DNA of 64,000 bases from positions 62,001 to 126,000 of the forward strand of contig NZ_MDFM01000007.1 in NCBI RefSeq assembly GCF_002939985.1, written 5' to 3'. This DNA is from Xanthomonas hortorum pv. cynarae (lineage in GTDB: Bacteria > Pseudomonadota > Gammaproteobacteria > Xanthomonadales > Xanthomonadaceae). Position 1 is the first letter of the stretch; every line of letters begins with the position of its first letter. The position numbers were made by a program, and so were the translations under genes. Shown here one piece after another: positions 2,636 to 64,000 of this stretch. The notes under the pieces were generated by a model. That model was given only the letters and a program-made list of their open reading frames with translations. It searched no databases and was not told the origin of the DNA.

Positions 2636-3073
2636 TCACGCGTGCAGCGGCGGCCCACGTGCCCCGAGTGCGGCCCAGCGCACGACCGACCACGCCCGTG
2701 CATGGGTGTGCATGGGCGCCGGCGCCGACCGGAGTTGCAGCAGACACAGCACCAGCAGCGCCAGCCACGGCAGCAGGCGCGCGGCCAGCACGCAGTAATC
2801 GCAAGCTTCGCCGTGCATGCCGGCAGCGTGTTCGCCAGTTGGAGGCTTGGCTGGCGACGCGGCGCTGCCGTGATGATGCGCGGCAGTCTGCGCCGGCATG
2901 GCCTGGTGGCCTGCGTGCGACGCCCCGCCTGCATCCAATGCAGGCCCGCTCATGCACATCGGTTCGACCGACTGCGCCTGGCTCCACCGGCTGATCAGCG
3001 GCGCCACCAGCATCAGCGCCACCGCCAGACAGGCAAGCAGGTGCAGCCAACGGTGATGACGGAACGAACGCAT
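2636..3073 (-). CDS. DUF2946 family protein
   Basis: A 145-residue protein with an N-terminal membrane segment (WLHLLACLAVALMLVAPLI, about residues 9-27), a central His/Cys/Met-rich part (SHAGHQAMPAQTAAHHHG, then HGEACDYCVLAARLL) and a second hydrophobic segment (PWLALLVLCLLQL). The EACDYC motif and this layout match DUF2946, small membrane proteins of unknown activity often encoded next to TonB-dependent receptors and copper-related genes. The metal-ligand-rich loop suggests metal handling, which is an inference. It is first in a minus-strand group with the broken receptor and the PepSY-TM gene. A 13-bp tandem repeat lies 60-120 bp upstream. Confidence 0.8.
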   Translation of the reverse strand: MRSFRHHRWLHLLACLAVALMLVAPLISRWSQAQSVEPMCMSGPALDAGGASHAGHQAMPAQTAAHHHGSAASPAKPPTGEHAAGMHGEACDYCVLAARLLPWLALLVLCLLQLRSAPAPMHTHARAWSVVRWAALGARGPPLHA

Positions 3074-3403
3074 CGCGCGAGTGTAAACCGCCGCCTACCG
3101 CGCGGCGATGCTTGCGGCCGGTGCGCGACCGGATGTCGCACCCTGATGTCGCACCCTGATGTCGCACCCTGATGTCGCACCCTGATGTCGCATCCTTGGG
3201 TCGTCGCAACCCCTTCGTACTGATCGTTGCTCAGCCGCAACACACCGCGCAATTTGCGTCACGACATCGCAAACAAACCAAAACGCCGCCCCTCCACTGT
3301 CGGGGCCGGCAGTCACAGTTCCAGCCACGAGCGTGATTGCACCCACATGCCAGCCCCTGCCATGCCCTATGCTTGTCGCTTATCCAATTAATTCTGCGCG
3401 CGC
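3074..3403. other. Intergenic region between DUF2946 operon and histidine kinase
   Basis: This 330-bp divergent spacer should carry promoters for both flanking genes. The only conspicuous structure is the 13-bp tandem repeat at 3132-3192. No convincing small ORF or RNA gene was seen. Confidence 0.5.
3132..3192. repeat. 13-bp tandem repeat, five copies
   Basis: GATGTCGCA begins at 3132, 3145, 3158, 3171 and 3184, a regular 13-bp period with unit GATGTCGCACCCT. The first four units are complete and identical; the fifth diverges after GATGTCGCA. The array lies about 60-120 bp upstream of the DUF2946 start at 3073. The short period, with no distinct spacers, rules out CRISPR. It could be a variable-number repeat or an array of protein-binding sites. 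Confidence 0.95.
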
Positions 3404-4597
3404 ATGAGCGTCTTGTTCGATCCAGCGGCTGAGCCCCTTCCCTGCGCGCCCAAACCAGCGAGCGAAGCGTTGCGCCTGCAGGCGCTGCGCAGCTACGGCA
3501 TTCTCGATACGCCGCGCGAGGCGGCATTCGAAGACATCACCAGGTTGGCCTCGATCATCTGCCAGACCCCGATCGCGCTGATCAGCCTGGTGGATGCCGA
3601 CCGCCAATGGTTCAAGAGCGAGCGCGGCATGGGCGAGCGCGAGACGCCGCTGTTCAAGTCGATGTGCGCGCATGCGCTGCTCGACAACGACGTGCTGGTA
3701 GTGCCCGACACGCGCGAAGACATCCGCTTTGCACGCAACCCGCTGGTCACCGGCGAGGTGCCACTGCGGTTTTATGCCGGTGCGTTGCTCAAGACCAGCG
3801 AAGGCCTGTCGCTGGGCACGGTCTGCGTGCTGGACCGGCAACCGCGTCAACTCACTGACGAACAGGTCGAAGCGCTGCGCGCACTGGCACGCCAGACCAT
3901 GGCGCAGCTGGAACTGCGCCGCGCGCTGCAGACTGCCGAAGAGTCCGACCGCTATCGCAGCCGACTGATGGCGATCGCCGGGCACGACCTGAAAACCCCG
4001 CTGCGCACTGCGGCCTATGCCATCGACAAGATGCGCCGGCACGCCAATGTCGATTCCGTTCCCACCCTGGTCACCGCACGCGATGCGATCGGCGTGGTGG
4101 CACGCAGCCTCGACGAACTGGCCACACTGGCCGCCGCGAGCAAGAGCTCCACCCCGGATCTGCAGCCGCTGGCACTGGAAGACGTGCTGCACGCGGTCCT
4201 CGGCGTGTGGCGGCAACCGGCGAGCGACAAATGCCTGGCCTTGCGCCACGTGCCCACTTCGCTGCGCGTGCGCAGCCACGCCACGCTGCTGACCACGCTG
4301 ATCGGCAACCTGGTCGGCAACGCGGTCAAGTACACCGAACGCGGACGCGTACTGGTCGGCGTGCGCCGCCGCCCCGGCTATGCCGTGGTGGAAATCATCG
4401 ACAGCGGCATCGGCCTGAACCTGGACCACCCCGAACAGGTGTTCCAGGCGTTTCGCCAGGCCGACCCGAACAGCGAAGGGCTGGGCATCGGTCTATGGAT
4501 CGTGCACCGCACTGCCGAAACCCTGGACTGCGAGGTGGATGTGCGCCCGCGCCCGGCAGGCGGCACCTGTTTCTCGGTACGCATCCCGCTGGCCTGA
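3404..4597 (+). CDS. GAF-domain sensor histidine kinase
   Basis: A 397-residue soluble sensor kinase. Residues about 22-175 form a GAF domain (LRSYGILDTPREAAFEDITR, then CVLDRQPRQLTDEQVEAL), a type common in kinases that also contain GILDT/P-E-FD. A HisKA domain follows with the phospho-acceptor His at 194 (AGHDLKTPLR), then a HATPase_c domain with N-box around Asn306 (NLVGNAVKYTERG), G1 (IIDSGIGL, 332-339) and G2 (GLGIGLWIV, 359-367). There are no transmembrane helices, so the signal is probably cytoplasmic. No response regulator is adjacent, so it is an orphan here and the partner is unknown. Start chosen at the first ATG that leaves a complete GAF domain. Confidence 0.9.
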   Translation: MSVLFDPAAEPLPCAPKPASEALRLQALRSYGILDTPREAAFEDITRLASIICQTPIALISLVDADRQWFKSERGMGERETPLFKSMCAHALLDNDVLVVPDTREDIRFARNPLVTGEVPLRFYAGALLKTSEGLSLGTVCVLDRQPRQLTDEQVEALRALARQTMAQLELRRALQTAEESDRYRSRLMAIAGHDLKTPLRTAAYAIDKMRRHANVDSVPTLVTARDAIGVVARSLDELATLAAASKSSTPDLQPLALEDVLHAVLGVWRQPASDKCLALRHVPTSLRVRSHATLLTTLIGNLVGNAVKYTERGRVLVGVRRRPGYAVVEIIDSGIGLNLDHPEQVFQAFRQADPNSEGLGIGLWIVHRTAETLDCEVDVRPRPAGGTCFSVRIPLA

Positions 4598-12390: not shown

Positions 12391-12595
12391 ATGTGTGGCG
12401 CGGCGCGCATCGCGATGTGCATCGCGATGTGCACGCATGCCGACGATGCCGGTGGCCGCGCATCGGGCGGATGCGCGCATGGGTCTTGTCTGGCGTCTTG
12501 CATGCGCAAACGTTCCGCAACAAACCTCACCCGGACATGCCACACAGCACAACGGCGACCCACAGGCCGCCGTTGTGTTTGTCCTCGCGATCACC

Positions 12596-27810: not shown

Positions 27811-28503
27811 TTGTCGATGTTCACCCCGCAAGAGCTGACCGCGATCGGCTTGAGTCTCAAGGTCGCGATCGTTGCCGCCATCGCCAGCCTGCCGCCGGGT
27901 ATTGCCTGCGGTTGGTTGCTGGCGCGGCGGCGCTTTCCGGGCAAGGCCCTGTTGGACGCGTTGCTGCACTTGCCCTTGGTGATGCCGCCGGTGGTCACCG
28001 GCTACGCGCTGCTGGTGGTGCTGGGCACGCAGGGGCCGGTCGGTAGCTGGCTGCTGGAGTACTTCGGTGTGCAGTTCGCGTTCCGTTGGACCGGCGCGGC
28101 GCTGGCATGCGCGGTGATGGGCTTTCCATTGATGGTGCGCGCCATTCGCCTGTCCATCGAAGCCACAGACCGCCGCCTGGAAGCCGCCGCTGCCACGCTC
28201 GGCGCCGGTCCGTGGCGGGTGTTCTTCAGCATCACCTTGCCGCTGGCCTGGCCGGGTCTGGTCGCTGGCACGGTGCTGGCCTTCGCCAAGGCCTTGGGCG
28301 AGTTCGGCGCCACCATCACCTTCGTCTCCAATATCCCTGGCGAAACCCAGACCTTGTCGTCGGCCATCTACGGCTTGATGCAGGTGCCGGGCATGGAATC
28401 GGGCGTGTGGCGGCTGGCCGGAGTTGCATTGGCGATCTCGCTGGCGGCGCTGCTGTTGTCCGAGTGGCTGGTGCGCAGGCCGCATCCGCGTGAGGAAGAC
28501 TGA
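27811..28503 (+). CDS. modB: Molybdate ABC transporter, permease
   Basis: A 230-residue inner-membrane permease with about five helices (for example LSLKVAIVAAIASLPPGIA and LHLPLVMPPVVTGYALLVVL). It carries the EAA loop that docks on ModC: RLEAAAATLGAGPWRVFFSI (about 131-150), followed by TLPLAWPGLVAGTVLAFAKA and FGATITFVSNIPGET. The TTG at 27811 has GAGG seven bases upstream; the ATG at 27817 is the alternative. Its stop shares a base with the modC start (TGATG). Confidence 0.94.
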   Translation: MSMFTPQELTAIGLSLKVAIVAAIASLPPGIACGWLLARRRFPGKALLDALLHLPLVMPPVVTGYALLVVLGTQGPVGSWLLEYFGVQFAFRWTGAALACAVMGFPLMVRAIRLSIEATDRRLEAAAATLGAGPWRVFFSITLPLAWPGLVAGTVLAFAKALGEFGATITFVSNIPGETQTLSSAIYGLMQVPGMESGVWRLAGVALAISLAALLLSEWLVRRPHPREED

Positions 28504-29117
28504 TGCTGGACATCGATCTGCAGTTGCAGCGCGGCAACTTCCAGCGCCACATCCGGATTCAGGACGCCGCCCGCGTGGTGGCCTTGGTCGGCCCGTCCGG
28601 TGCCGGCAAGACCACCGTGCTCAACGCGATCGCCGGGCTGGTGCAACCGCAGGCCGGGCATATCCGCATCGATGGGCGGTGTCTGTACGACGCCCGGCAA
28701 GGCGTGGACCTGCCTACGCACAAGCGCAGCATCGGCTATGTCTTTCAGGATGCGCGGCTGTTTCCGCATCTGGATGTGCGCCGCAATCTGCGTTACGGCC
28801 GGCATGCGCGTGGCGCGGCGCCGTTCGGTTTCGATGATGTGGTGGCATTGCTGGGAATTGCGCCGTTACTGCAACGCCGGCCGCGCAATTTGTCAGGTGG
28901 CGAAGCGCAACGCGTGGCGATCGGCCGCGCCTTGTTGTCGCAACCGGCGATTCTATTGTTCGACGAGCCCTTGTCTGCGCTGGATCAGGCGCGCCGCGAA
29001 GAGTTGATTCCCTACCTGCAGCGCGTGCGCGACGAGATCCGTCTGCCGATGTTGTACGTGAGCCACAATCCCGACGAAGTGCAGCGCATTGCCGACAGCG
29101 TACATGTGCTGGAGTAA
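28503..29117 (+). CDS. modC: Molybdate ABC transporter, ATPase (short form)
   Basis: A 204-residue ABC ATPase. Walker A is GPSGAGKTT (about 30-38), the Q-loop is VFQDARLFPHL, the signature is LSGGEAQRVAIGRALL, Walker B is ILLFDEPLSALD and the switch His is in LYVSHNPDEV. It ends soon after (SVHVLE), whereas ModC from E. coli is about 352 residues and has a C-terminal TOBE/Mop molybdate-binding domain. No remnant of that domain follows downstream in any frame, so this is a natural core-ATPase form, not an obvious recent truncation. Translation is coupled to modB. Confidence 0.93.
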   Translation: MLDIDLQLQRGNFQRHIRIQDAARVVALVGPSGAGKTTVLNAIAGLVQPQAGHIRIDGRCLYDARQGVDLPTHKRSIGYVFQDARLFPHLDVRRNLRYGRHARGAAPFGFDDVVALLGIAPLLQRRPRNLSGGEAQRVAIGRALLSQPAILLFDEPLSALDQARREELIPYLQRVRDEIRLPMLYVSHNPDEVQRIADSVHVLE

Positions 29118-29150
29118 ACGCAGCCGGCAGGGTTGGTGCGTTGCGTCCAC

Positions 29151-29178
29151 ACGCTGACGCAAGGCCTGCGTCAGCGTG
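29151..29178. terminator. Stem-loop between modC and the convergent lipoprotein gene
   Basis: CACGCTGACGCA and TGCGTCAGCGTG pair around a short loop. It overlaps the end of the minus-strand gene (stop at 29171-29173) and could stop transcripts from both sides. There is no clear U-run. Confidence 0.4.
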
Positions 29179-29801
29179 CAACCTTGCCGGTGCGCACGCT
29201 GACCTTGCCCTGCCGCACCTCGAAGGTGAATGCGAACGACAGCGTCACCGGCACCGGTTCTTCGTCGGTTGCGCCGCGGCAGTCGTCCAGCGCCGCCGGT
29301 TGTGCCACACCAGGCGCACCGGTTGTGCCACACCAGGCGCACCGGTTGTGCCACACCAGGCGCAAACGTGCACATCGCGGCCGGCACGAACTGCCATTGC
29401 TGCACCGTGGTACGCACCGCCTGCACCAGATCGGCATTGCCCGGCAGCAGACCGGCCGCGCATTCGTCGCGGTCGGACATCGGATCGACGCGCTGCACCG
29501 CGCCGTCGGCGGTCAGGATCACATGCGCGCACACGGTGGTCGGCGGCAAGCTCTGCCGTGGCGAATCGGCCGGCAGCACCGGCGCCGCGCTGCGCAGCGC
29601 GCGCGGCATGCGGAAGCGTTGTGTCGGCGCCAGCGTATAAGGCTGGATCGAAGAATCGCCCTCGCCTCCCGACTGCGCGCTCAGCATGCGCTGGTCCACC
29701 GAATCTTCGCGCTGGCTGCGCTGCTGTTCCTGCACACGTAGCGTTGCGCATGCGCCAAGCGACAGCGCCAGGAATGCGGCGCAGATCTGAGCACCTCTCA
29801 T
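29171..29801 (-). pseudogene. Putative lipoprotein, frame broken by 23-bp repeats (possible phase-variable gene)
   Basis: The ATG at 29801 overlaps the M56 stop (TGATG). The product begins RGAQICAAFLALSLGAC, a lipoprotein signal with lipobox LGAC. The body includes VCAHVILTADGAVQRVDPMS and VRTTVQQWQFVPAAMC, resembling the TonB C-terminal fold. It then enters three 23-bp copies (29296-29364). In the current state the frame leaves the gene and runs on antisense into modC. Another frame downstream gives a natural end: AALDDCRGATDEEPVPVTL, SFAFTFEVRQGKVSVRTGKV and a stop at 29171. With one copy, or with four, this end is in frame. So the allele seen looks OFF, but the gene may switch. A recent disabling duplication is the alternative. 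Confidence 0.75.
29296..29364. repeat. Intragenic 23-bp tandem repeat, three copies
   Basis: Three identical 23-bp units lie at 29296-29318, 29319-29341 and 29342-29364; each starts CCGGTTGTGCC and ends AGGCGCA. As 23 is not a multiple of three, every gain or loss of a unit shifts the reading frame of the lipoprotein gene. Confidence 0.97.
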
Positions 29802-31141
29802 CACAGCGCCTCCTGTAACGCGCAGCCTGGCAACGCGCAACCGGCAAGGCGCTCGGAGGGTGGCGCATGCGATCGTGCAGCGCTGGGGCTGGCATTGGCG
29901 GTCTTGGTCGTTTGCTCAGGCGCATCCAGTTCGAACTTCACCGGCACGCGCACGTTCGATGCAATGGCCTTGCCCTGTGCGTACGCTGGTTTCAGTCGCC
30001 ATTGGCGCGCTGCATCCAGCACCGCTTGATCGAAGACACCGGCCGGCGTGCTGCGCACGACGGCGATGTGCTGCGGTACGCCGCCTGGGTCGACCTCCAT
30101 CTGCAGTTCGACAAAGCCCTCGATGCCGCCATCGAACGCAGGTGCAGGATATTTAGGCGGTCGCATCGTGGTGAAATCCGCATACTTCGACTCCCGCATG
30201 CGAGTGACACCCGCCGCATCGTTGTCTGCAGGCGCGGCGTAAGGCGCTGCTGCGATACGCGCTGGCTGCAGGGCCCAAGCGGCGGCACTGAGTGTTACCG
30301 CGAGCAACAGCACACCCCCACTGCTCCAGCGCGAACGCCTGGCATCTTTCAGTGGCTTGCGCAGCGCTGCAATCCGCTGTGTCAACGGATGCGCCGCAGC
30401 CCAATGACAGGCGAGCGGTGTGCACCCAGCACCCAGTTGGGTCTTGAGCATTGCCGTGGCATAGATGCGGCGCTTGCCTGGATGTTGTGCCAGCACGGCC
30501 GCATCGCAGGCCAGTTCCTGATCCAGCCGGAACGCACGCCAGGCCAGATGCATCAGCGGGTTGAACCAACCGATGCAGAGCATCAGGGCCGCAAGCAGAT
30601 TGGCATGCAGATCGCCGCGGCGCAGATGCAGCCGTTCGTGCGCCAGCACCAACGCACGTTCGGCAGCGCAATAGCGCGTAGTGAAATCCGACGGCACCAC
30701 AATACGTGGGCGCCAGATTCCCAATGATGCCGGCAGCCCGGCGTCATGCGTTGCCGACCACACTGTATTGTCCAACGCGTACAAAGGCCCAAGGCTGCGC
30801 ACGAAACGATGCTGCCGCCGCCACAGCATGGCTGCCATCAGCGCGGCACCAGTCAGCCACACCGCCAATGCCAGCGTCGTCCACGCAGTAGCACCGTCAT
30901 GCGCGTTGGAGAGCGCCGGTATGGCAGCAAGCAGCGGCACCTTCAACATCACAGCATCCGACTGGGGGCTTGGCAGCACGGCAGCCAACAAGGCGAGCGG
31001 AACGCATGCCCAGATCGCGTACGCCGCCGTTGCACCAAGCCAGCCGCGCAAGGGGCGCCGCAGGAGCAGACAGATCGATAGCGCGGCCGCGGTGTAAAGC
31101 GTTGCGCGCAGCAGTAGCGGAACCAATGTGTCAGGGCTCAT
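29801..31141 (-). CDS. M56 (BlaR1-like) membrane metallopeptidase with TonB C-terminal domain
   Basis: A 446-residue protein. Helices near the N-terminus (LLRATLYTAAALSICLLL, then IWACVPLALLAAVLP and WTTLALAVWLTGAALMAAML) precede the M56 zinc site LAHERLHLRRGD (HExxH, about 167-171), and the third ligand is in DQELACDAAVL. A helix (GGVLLLAVTLSAAAWALQ) leads into a periplasmic domain: FDGGIEGFVELQMEVDPGGV, VVRSTPAGVFDQAVLDAARQ and WRLKPAYAQGKAIASNVRV. This is the TonB C-terminal fold. BlaR1 has a penicillin-binding sensor there; this one does not, so its signal should differ. The BlaI gene overlaps upstream and the lipoprotein is coupled downstream. Confidence 0.88.
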   Translation of the reverse strand: MSPDTLVPLLLRATLYTAAALSICLLLRRPLRGWLGATAAYAIWACVPLALLAAVLPSPQSDAVMLKVPLLAAIPALSNAHDGATAWTTLALAVWLTGAALMAAMLWRRQHRFVRSLGPLYALDNTVWSATHDAGLPASLGIWRPRIVVPSDFTTRYCAAERALVLAHERLHLRRGDLHANLLAALMLCIGWFNPLMHLAWRAFRLDQELACDAAVLAQHPGKRRIYATAMLKTQLGAGCTPLACHWAAAHPLTQRIAALRKPLKDARRSRWSSGGVLLLAVTLSAAAWALQPARIAAAPYAAPADNDAAGVTRMRESKYADFTTMRPPKYPAPAFDGGIEGFVELQMEVDPGGVPQHIAVVRSTPAGVFDQAVLDAARQWRLKPAYAQGKAIASNVRVPVKFELDAPEQTTKTANASPSAARSHAPPSERLAGCALPGCALQEAL

Positions 31142-31496
31142 CGTCCAACTCCTTGATCAGCTTTTTCAATTCCGCGATGTCGGACGCACTGAGCTTTCCG
31201 CGCTCGCTGAAATGCGCCACCAATGGCGCCACCCGCCCACCGAATAGTCGTTGCAGCAATCCTTCGCTCTGTTGCTGTACCCACTGCTCGCGTTGCAGCA
31301 GCGGGGTATAGAGATATTTGCGCCCGTCTTTCTGCGCGGCGATGGCGCCCTTGTTGAGCAGGCGATTGAGCAGAGTCTTGATGGTCGGCTCGGCCCAATC
31401 GGTCTGTGCCAGCGCTGCGACCACCTCTTCTGCCGTGCGCGGAGCACCGTCCCAGAGCACTTGCATCACTACCGCCTCTGCATCGCTGATCGACAT
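31131..31496 (-). CDS. BlaI/MecI-family transcriptional repressor
   Basis: A 121-residue repressor. The start is the ATG of MSISDAEAVVMQVLWDG (31496). The winged helix spans about residues 1-70 and has PRTAEEVVAAL, TIKTLLNRLLNKGAIAA and RKYLYTPLL. The C-terminal part is a helical dimerisation/cleavage region. In BlaR1/BlaI systems the M56 protease triggers cleavage of the repressor; the M56 gene overlaps its end by 11 bases here. Two TTACAT-CGTAA boxes directly upstream point to autoregulation. Confidence 0.9.
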   Translation of the reverse strand: MSISDAEAVVMQVLWDGAPRTAEEVVAALAQTDWAEPTIKTLLNRLLNKGAIAAQKDGRKYLYTPLLQREQWVQQQSEGLLQRLFGGRVAPLVAHFSERGKLSASDIAELKKLIKELDDEP

Positions 31497-31500
31497 CCGA

Positions 31501-31534
31501 TTACATCCGTAATTTTTAATGATTACATGCGTAA
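31501..31534 (-). promoter_or_regulatory. Paired BlaI-type operators
   Basis: TTACATCCGTAA (31501-31512) and TTACATGCGTAA (31523-31534) differ by one base, are 22 bp apart and lie immediately upstream of the BlaI start. Each has the dyad TTAC...GTAA, resembling the TACA-TGTA elements of BlaI/MecI. They probably overlap the promoter of the operon. Confidence 0.7.
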
Positions 31535-61597: not shown

Positions 61598-64000
61598 ATG
61601 CCCCGTATTCGCCGTTGGTTGGGCTGGATCCTGGCCACGCTCGTCGTGCTCGCACTGCTTGGCGCTATTGCTGCCGGCGGCCTGTATTACGCCATTTCCT
61701 CGAAGTTGCCGGACGTGCAGTCGCTCAAGCAGGTCGAGCTGCAGGAGCCGATGTACGTCTATGCCAGCGACGGCCGCCTGATGGCAGTGTATGGCGAGAC
61801 CCGGCGCTACCCGATCCAGATGAAGGACGTGCCGCTGCGCCTCAAGCAGGCCTTTCTGGCGACCGAGGATGCGCGCTTCTATCAACATGGCGGTGTGGAC
61901 TACAAGGGCATCGGCCGTGCGGTCTGGCTGCTGGCCACTACCGACGCCAAGCGCGTGCCGGGTGGGTCGACGATCACCCAGCAGGTGGCGCGCCAGTTCT
62001 TCCTCAGTTCCGAGTACAGCTACACCCGCAAGCTCGCCGAGATCCTGTTGGCGCGCAAGATCGAGAGTGAACTGAGCAAGGACGAAATCTTCGAGCTGTA
62101 TCTCAACAAGAGCTTCTTCGGCAACCGCGCCTACGGCGTGGGTGCCGCGGCCGAGTACTACTACGGCAAGAAGATGAGCGAGTTGAGCCTGGACGAGATG
62201 GCTTCGCTGGCCGGTATCCCCAAGTTCCCGTCCAGCGGCAACCCGATCAGCAACCCGGAGCGTGCGCAGGAACGGCGCGATTACTATGTGTTGCAACGCA
62301 TGGCCGAGCTGGGCTTTGTCACCCAGGCCGAAGCCGATGCCGCCAAGGCGGTGCCGATGCACGCGAAGCCTCACGAGCCGCCGGTCGAGGTCTATGCCCC
62401 TTATGTGGCCGAGTTGGTGCGCCAGGAAATGATCGCCAAGTACGGCGGCGATGTGCTCAACAAGGGTTACCACGTCACCACCACCATCGACGCGACGCTG
62501 CAGACCGGCGCCGATGCGGCGATCGCAGAAGGCCTGCGCCTGTACGACCACCGGCATGGCTGGCACGGCGTGGAGCAGCATTTCGATGTGGCCGCCGATG
62601 CCGATGCCGATGCGCCGGCGCTGGCCAAACATCTGTCGGGCGTGTTCACCCAGGGCGGCCTGCGCGCAGTGATCGTGGCGCGCACCAACGCCGACGGCGG
62701 CGTGACCGTGGTACAGAGCGACAAGACTGAGTTGACCCTACCGGCCAGCGCCAGCCGCTGGACCAACAAGACGCCGGCCAAGCTGCTGACGCGCGGCGAC
62801 CTGACCCGCATCCGCGCCGGCGAAAAAGACGGCGAGTGGATCATCGATCAGTTGCCGCGCGGCCAGGCCGCGCTGGTATCGCTGGACGCCAACAGCGGCG
62901 CCCTGCGCGCACTGGTCGGCGGCTTCAGCTTTGCCGGCAACAAGTTCAATCGCGCCACCCAGGCGCGCCGCCAGCCGGGCTCGAGCTTCAAGCCGTTCGT
63001 ATATGCAGCCGCGTTCGAGAAGGGCTTCAATCCGGCCTCGATCGTGCTCGATGCGCCGGTGGTGTTCCGCGACCGCCGCGGCAAGACCTGGTCGCCGCAG
63101 AACGACGGCGGCGGTTTCCGCGGCCCGATGCGCCTGCGCGAGGCATTGGTACAATCGCGCAATCTGGTGTCGGTGCGGCTGTTGGACGCAATCAGCGTCG
63201 ATTTCGCACGCAAGTACATCAGCCAGTTCGGCTTCCAGGAAGCGGAGCTGCCGCCCAACCTGTCGATGTCGCTGGGCACCGCGTCGCTGACGCCGCTCTC
63301 GGTCGCGCGTGGCTATGCGGTGTTCGCCAACGGCGGCTCACGGGTGGAGACCTGGATCGTGGACGAGGTCAAGGACCGCGACGGCAACGTCATCTTCAAG
63401 GAAGTGCCGGCCGTGGCCTGCCGCACCTGCGCGACGCAGGGCGGCACCGCCGCACCGGTCAGCCAGGTGGTGGACGGCTTCAACTTCGGCGCGCCTGCGT
63501 TGCCCAAGTCGATCGAACCGGCGACCGCAGCGCCGGCCACACCAGCGGAGACCACCCCGGCAGCCGTTGCCGAAACCAAGATCGCGCCGCGTGCCATCGA
63601 CGAGCGCACCGCGTACCAATTGGTGTCGATGATGCGCGACGTGGTCCAGCGCGGCACCGGCACCGCGGCAAAGGTGCTGGGGCGTGAGGACGTGGGCGGC
63701 AAGACCGGCTCGACCAACGACCATCGCGATGCCTGGTTCTCCGGGTTCGGCGGCCCTTACGCCACTACGGTGTGGGTGGGTCGCGACGATTTCCGCTCGC
63801 TCGGCTATCGCGAGTACGGCGGCAAGGCCGCACTGCCGATCTGGATCGACTACATGCGTGTCGCCTTGAAGGACAAGCCGATCGCCGCCAACGACCCGCC
63901 CGACGGCATGACCCAGGCCACCATCAATGGTGCGGTGGAATGGGTGAAGAACGAAGATCTGGATCGTCTGCAGGATTACGACTACGGCCTGCAGGAACAG
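61598..64000 (+). CDS. mrcA: Class A penicillin-binding protein 1A (5' part)
   Basis: The first 801 residues of a bifunctional peptidoglycan synthase; the gene continues past the window. A transmembrane helix ([20 protein letters not shown], about 7-26) precedes the GT51 glycosyltransferase domain: catalytic Glu90 in [14 protein letters not shown], then [16 protein letters not shown] (122-137) and [20 protein letters not shown]. An OB-like insert (about 310-420) is of the PBP1A type. The transpeptidase has S-x-x-K at SSFK (Ser462, Lys465), S-x-N at SRN and K-T-G at 702. It is divergent from pilM, as in other gammaproteobacteria. A possible -10 (TATACT) is at 61555-61560, without a good -35. 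Confidence 0.95.

What the first reader, a model, noticed from the sequence alone, without database searches (positions are those of the whole stretch)
29171..29801. A possibly phase-variable lipoprotein gene controlled by a 23-bp minisatellite
Three identical 23-bp units (29296-29364) sit inside the gene and push the frame off its natural end. The current frame exits into antisense modC, while the frame that gives a sensible C-terminus (ending at 29171) is shifted by one. Arithmetic on the coordinates shows that one or four copies would restore it. This is the classic layout of slipped-strand ON/OFF switching, but with a long unit. The gene is coupled to a BlaI-controlled membrane protease, so switching would change an envelope response.
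Basis: partly seen in the sequence, partly recalled or inferred. Interest (0 to 1): 0.75.

Follow-up and report, generated by a model that had tools for sequence, protein, structure and literature searches.

The report
Tandem triplication that broke a gene
A 23-base stretch repeated three times in a row has knocked a small envelope-protein gene out of frame in this one Xanthomonas genome; no relative examined carries such an array, so it looks like a fresh, ordinary gene-breaking mutation rather than a proven on/off switch.

Summary
Three perfect 23-bp units (29296-29364, minus strand) lie inside a lipoprotein gene that starts at 29801; the present frame runs on to 28953, antisense to modC. 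The gene is third in a blaI-M56 peptidase-lipoprotein operon, syntenic in 25 of 25 named Xanthomonas loci. Relatives encode about 194 aa with a lipobox and four further conserved cysteines; some distant homologues resemble TonB_C weakly. Two conserved motifs flanking the array are 93 nt apart in 30 of 32 other Xanthomonas genomes read; they are 92 nt apart in one (frameshifted on its own account) and unmeasured in one (broken upstream). Only this genome has 139 nt, 46 more, i.e. two extra units. So one unit is ancestral and the array is a lineage-specific triplication that cuts off the conserved C-terminus. Three of the 32 other genomes have broken the same gene by other routes, so it is sometimes dispensable. 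Four other arrays in the window are also longer than in the three nearest relatives. A one-off pseudogenising triplication is the best reading. Phase variation is not excluded, because no second strain of this species could be examined, but nothing positive beyond the layout supports it. Interest is low.

The parts
29296..29364 (-). Three perfect 23-bp tandem units (the segment is present once in the three nearest relatives)
29365..29801 (-). 5' part of the lipoprotein gene: start codon, lipobox (LGAC), first 145 codons; 95-96% protein identity to the three nearest relatives
29171..29295 (-). 3' part of the gene in the frame used by relatives (last conserved cysteine and PVPVTLSFAFTFEV stretch); open but out of frame with the start here
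28953..29295 (-). Run-on of the present frame beyond the array, in part antisense to modC (28503-29117, plus strand)
29801..31141 (-). M56 (BlaR1-like) peptidase gene with TonB_C domain, one open frame of 446 aa; its stop overlaps the lipoprotein start (TGATG)
31131..31496 (-). BlaI/MecI-type repressor gene (Penicillinase_R); ATG at 31496 read from the sequence (the searches used 31131-31499)
31501..31534 (-). Two TTAC-N4-GTAA palindromes 22 bp apart, just upstream of blaI: probable BlaI operators; the only two in the window

Best explanation
A 23-bp segment that relatives carry once was tandemly triplicated in the recent history of this one Xanthomonas genome, by replication slippage or template switching, in one step or two. 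The added 46 bp put the last ~45 codons out of frame, so the protein loses its conserved C-terminal stretch and its last conserved cysteine, gains an unrelated tail and is most likely non-functional. The upstream blaI and M56 genes remain open. Shown: the array, its uniqueness among the genomes read, the ancestral single copy, the frame effect, operon conservation. Inferred: slippage, recency, loss of function, neutrality, and that the array is not used as a switch.
For: The distance between flanking motifs is 93 nt in 30 of 32 other Xanthomonas genomes read and 139 nt only here (one other is 92, one not measurable). In the three nearest genomes (~96% identical) the unit occurs exactly once. 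The units are identical, which suggests a young array. The lost part holds residues invariant in 23 of 23 aligned Xanthomonas homologues (C159, P167-L172, F174-F178), several of them invariant in 10 of 10 family-wide sequences (C159, L172, F176, F178, V187). The gene is broken by other means in 3 of 32 other genomes read (G019, G020, G027). Four other arrays in the window (3132, 12407, 41783, 62594) are longer than in all three nearest relatives, and relative G023 has three such arrays of its own, so such gains are ordinary here.
Against: The tail in the relatives' frame is still open and little changed (3 non-synonymous and 0-2 synonymous differences over about 120 sites), which fits a very recent loss but also a switch. 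Tandem repeats of this length can in principle lose or gain copies. The window shows more private tandem gains (5 including this one) than G023 (3), G021 (0) and G022 (0), so tandem copy number may be livelier in this genome.
Confidence: 0.8

Rival explanations
1. Phase variation: copies of the 23-bp unit are gained and lost at a useful rate, switching the lipoprotein on and off, as reported for tandem duplications in pneumococcal capsule genes.
For: Identical units; all three minus-strand frames are open across the array; nearly unchanged out-of-frame tail; nearest relatives open with a different copy number; several private tandem gains in this genome. Precedent: PMC4022640 (passages seen) cites Waite et al. 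2001 and 2003, whose titles call such duplications phase variation, and puts reversion for insertions of at most 9 bp at no more than about 1e-5.
Against: No array at the site in any of 32 other genomes read; nearest relatives have one unit; the gene is lost by other routes elsewhere. In Xenorhabdus lrp, tandem duplications of 26-116 bp were among the loss mutations, and in eight isolates tested none of the phenotypic reversions restored the gene (PMC6786866: section 8 read, passages; the text seen does not say whether the duplication isolates were among the eight). No strain-level data.
Confidence: 0.13
2. Assembly or sequencing artefact: the draft (102 contigs) counts the unit wrongly.
For: Draft genome; the reads cannot be seen.
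Against: A 69-bp array fits inside ordinary reads (general knowledge). A rough screen of relatives' long ORFs against the window flagged, besides this locus, only three other places where an ORF falls in two frames (about 5.6-6.1, 9.3-9.8 and 46.7-48.3 kb; some of those ORFs may not be genes). Private tandem gains are also seen in G023, an assembly of 5 contigs.
Confidence: 0.05
3. The out-of-frame product (282 aa) is a new functional protein.
For: The frame is open for 282 codons.
Against: Long spurious frames are common in this GC-rich sequence (one search lists 68 ORFs of 60 aa or more in 8 kb); the tail is partly antisense to modC; conserved C-terminal residues are lost.
Confidence: 0.02

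Closest known systems
Frame-disrupting spontaneous tandem duplications in bacterial genes (Xenorhabdus lrp, PMC6786866; section 8 and passages seen)
   Same: Tandem duplication of an internal segment (26-116 bp there) damages the gene; one of several kinds of loss mutation.
   Different: There found in lrp mutants with a phenotype; here one genome, no known phenotype, and 23 bp in three copies.
Pneumococcal capsule phase variation by tandem duplications (Waite et al. 2001, 2003; seen only as cited in PMC4022640)
   Same: Tandem copies within a reading frame abolish its product.
   Different: Reported there as phase variation; here no second state has been seen in the same species.
VNTR loci used for MLVA typing of Xanthomonas (search listing only, e.g. 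PMC8002079)
   Same: Tandem arrays that differ in copy number between Xanthomonas genomes.
   Different: Those are used because they vary among strains; variation here is shown only between species.

Membership tests
Phase-variable (contingency) locus | Repeat array inside or before a gene whose copy number sets the frame | tested here: met
Phase-variable (contingency) locus | Array present in related lineages, i.e. maintained | tested here: not met
   no array in any of 32 other Xanthomonas genomes read; the distance is that of a single segment in 30 of 32
Phase-variable (contingency) locus | Copy number varies among strains or cells of one species, reversibly | not testable with these tools
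   one genome per species is held; no reads
Pseudogene by tandem duplication | Open orthologues in relatives, private frame-shifting duplication here | tested here: met
   29 of 32 other genomes read are open through both halves; the three broken ones are G019, G020, G027
BlaI-M56 operon | Penicillinase_R repressor followed by Peptidase_M56 gene, BlaI-type palindromes upstream | tested here: met
   binding of BlaI to the palindromes not tested
TonB_C domain protein (the lipoprotein) | Match to PF03544 above its cut-off | tested here: inconclusive
   no TonB_C match in 23 Xanthomonas members; 5 of 9 distant homologues match below the cut-off, E 0.013-0.26
Lipoprotein | Signal peptide with lipobox cysteine | tested here: met
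   C18 and A19 invariant in 23 of 23; lipobox rule recalled; no signal-peptide program was run

The most novel reading that the evidence does not exclude
In this species the 23-bp array is a young, working switch: a tandem duplication captured as a reversible control of a BlaI-regulated envelope lipoprotein, i.e. a contingency locus caught at birth.
Probability: 0.1. Interest if true: 0.55.

Novelty: new member of a known kind. Interest (0 to 1): 0.2.

Why it matters
If it is a plain loss, it matters little beyond annotation: the gene should be marked as frameshifted, and its family (no Pfam or NCBIfam hit above cut-off in the members scanned; matches in 70 of 198 sampled genomes of the bacterial family) as sometimes dispensable. 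If isolates varied in copy number, it would be a long-unit switch of recent origin, and the birth of a contingency locus could be studied.

Tried and rejected
A dispersed repeat element: rejected, the unit occurs only at this site in the draft genome. A hairpin-driven origin: the single unit folds no better than shuffles (z +1.26; 186 of 200 shuffles as good) and the array only slightly better (z -1.21; 26 of 200), so not supported. An array shared by the genus: rejected. A gene already decayed downstream: rejected, the tail is open. Similarity of the lipoprotein to the M56 TonB_C domain: one 18-column match, probability 1.4%, inconclusive. Pfam on the 23 aligned members gave only weak hits: DUF6491 in 5 (best E 0.088), DUF7285 in 2 (best E 0.0043), ABCA12_C in 1; not followed. 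Solved structures: no credible match (best E 1.2). Literature: eight searches listed no paper that by title or abstract start treats this locus; only passages of PMC6786866 (plus its section 8), PMC4022640 and PMC13410964 were opened, so absence from print is not claimed. Poussier et al. 2003 (phcA) was seen only as a reference-list entry.

Full report
What is there. On the minus strand lie three genes: blaI (31496-31131, Penicillinase_R, E 5e-38), a 446-aa M56 peptidase with a TonB_C domain (31141-29801, E 5e-72 and 2e-16) and a lipoprotein gene that starts at 29801 inside the M56 stop codon, TGATG. Two TTAC-N4-GTAA palindromes, 22 bp apart, lie just upstream of blaI and are the only two in the 64-kb window. 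At least one such palindrome lies just upstream of blaI in 25 of 25 named relatives, and a pair with 22-bp spacing in 17 of 25. That these are BlaI operators is inferred from position, conservation and the recalled form of BlaI sites.

The array. 29296-29364 is three perfect 23-bp units, found nowhere else in the draft genome. The present frame goes through it and on to 28953, partly antisense to modC. The frame that relatives use ends at 29171.

Relatives. The genus search covered 35 genomes including the window's own. The site was read in 32 of the 34 others: 29 as loci L002-L030 and two (G014, G018) through named contigs L055 and L054, matched by contig position, and G024 as L068. G025 and G033 gave only short, weak matches, and G025 none with the protein profile. 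Between the conserved W of the WQF motif and the PVPVTL motif there are 93 nt in 30 of the 32 (29 by script; G024 counted by hand on the translation, because its WQFEP escaped the script's pattern). The distance is 92 nt in one (G027, by position L043, X. phaseoli ATCC 49119, frameshifted by itself) and not measurable in one (G019, frameshifted earlier). In the window it is 139. No relative has a second unit within 5 mismatches near the gene; in many the single segment has itself diverged beyond 5 mismatches. The three nearest genomes are about 96% identical to the window and to each other over this region, so together with the others they mark one unit as ancestral.

Effect. In relatives the protein is about 194 aa. 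Alignment A2 holds 23 of the 25 named loci (L043, broken, and L035 were left out); 13 of the 23 rows begin a little late because the search hit was trimmed. The rows align without gaps over the region concerned. C18, C91, C114, C144 and C159 are invariant in 23 of 23, as are P167-L172 and F174-F178. In ten sequences across the bacterial family, some of them partial, C91, C114, C144, C159, L172, F176, F178 and V187 are invariant. The window's present frame keeps the first three inner cysteines and loses C159 and the terminal stretch. Loss of function is inferred from this. Of the 32 other genomes read, 29 are open through both halves; G019, G020 and G027 are not. The family has matches at E <= 0.001 in 70 of 198 genomes of the bacterial family, some weak. 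No NCBIfam hit was found for the one member scanned, and no Pfam hit above cut-off in 23 Xanthomonas members or 9 others.

Background. Counted the same way in the four syntenic regions, arrays longer than in all three compared genomes number five in the window (3132, 12407, 29296, 41783, 62594), three in G023, none in G021 and none in G022; some arrays, mostly at region ends, could not be compared. Tandem gain is thus not peculiar to this gene. The operon also decays elsewhere: in G019 and G020 both the M56 and the lipoprotein gene are split between frames, and in L039 the M56 gene alone. For blaI, M56 and the mod genes pN/pS between the window and three relatives is 0.00-0.26 (one M56 comparison contained gaps); for the lipoprotein 5' part it is 0.35-0.53; the tail shows 3 non-synonymous against 0-2 synonymous differences, too few to date the break.

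Verdict on the switch. The layout would allow switching, but a contingency locus should be seen in more than one state within a species or be kept across relatives. The second does not hold in what was searched, and the first could not be tested. Published tandem duplications go both ways: phase variation in pneumococcal capsule genes (as cited in PMC4022640), and in Xenorhabdus lrp no reversion of the gene in eight isolates tested (PMC6786866). I rate simple loss at 0.8 and switching at 0.13.

Noticed in passing
window 3132-3196: Five 13-bp units, 98% matched, 38-39 bp (three units) more than in each of three relatives; between two divergent ORFs (145 aa at 2636-3073 minus; a GAF/histidine kinase-like ORF at 3404-4597 plus, named by eye). 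Could tune a promoter.
   Followed up: partly
window 12407-12433 and 62594-62613: 12-bp and 6-bp arrays one unit longer than in all three relatives; both steps are multiples of three. Whether they are coding was not settled.
   Followed up: partly
L069 (G019) and L070 (G020): Two small Xanthomonas genomes (4.1-4.3 Mb) have both the M56 gene and the lipoprotein gene split between frames, as if the whole operon were being lost.
   Followed up: partly
L039 about 2444: M56 gene of X. arboricola NL_P126 lies in two frames while its lipoprotein gene is open.
   Followed up: no
window 29365-29801: Synonymous differences of the lipoprotein 5' part from its three nearest relatives (0.035-0.053 per site) are fewer than in the neighbouring genes (0.080-0.183); unexplained.
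   Followed up: no
G023 region syntenic to window about 46800: This relative carries about 25 copies of a 7-bp unit, 137-143 bp longer than in the window and two other genomes.
   Followed up: no
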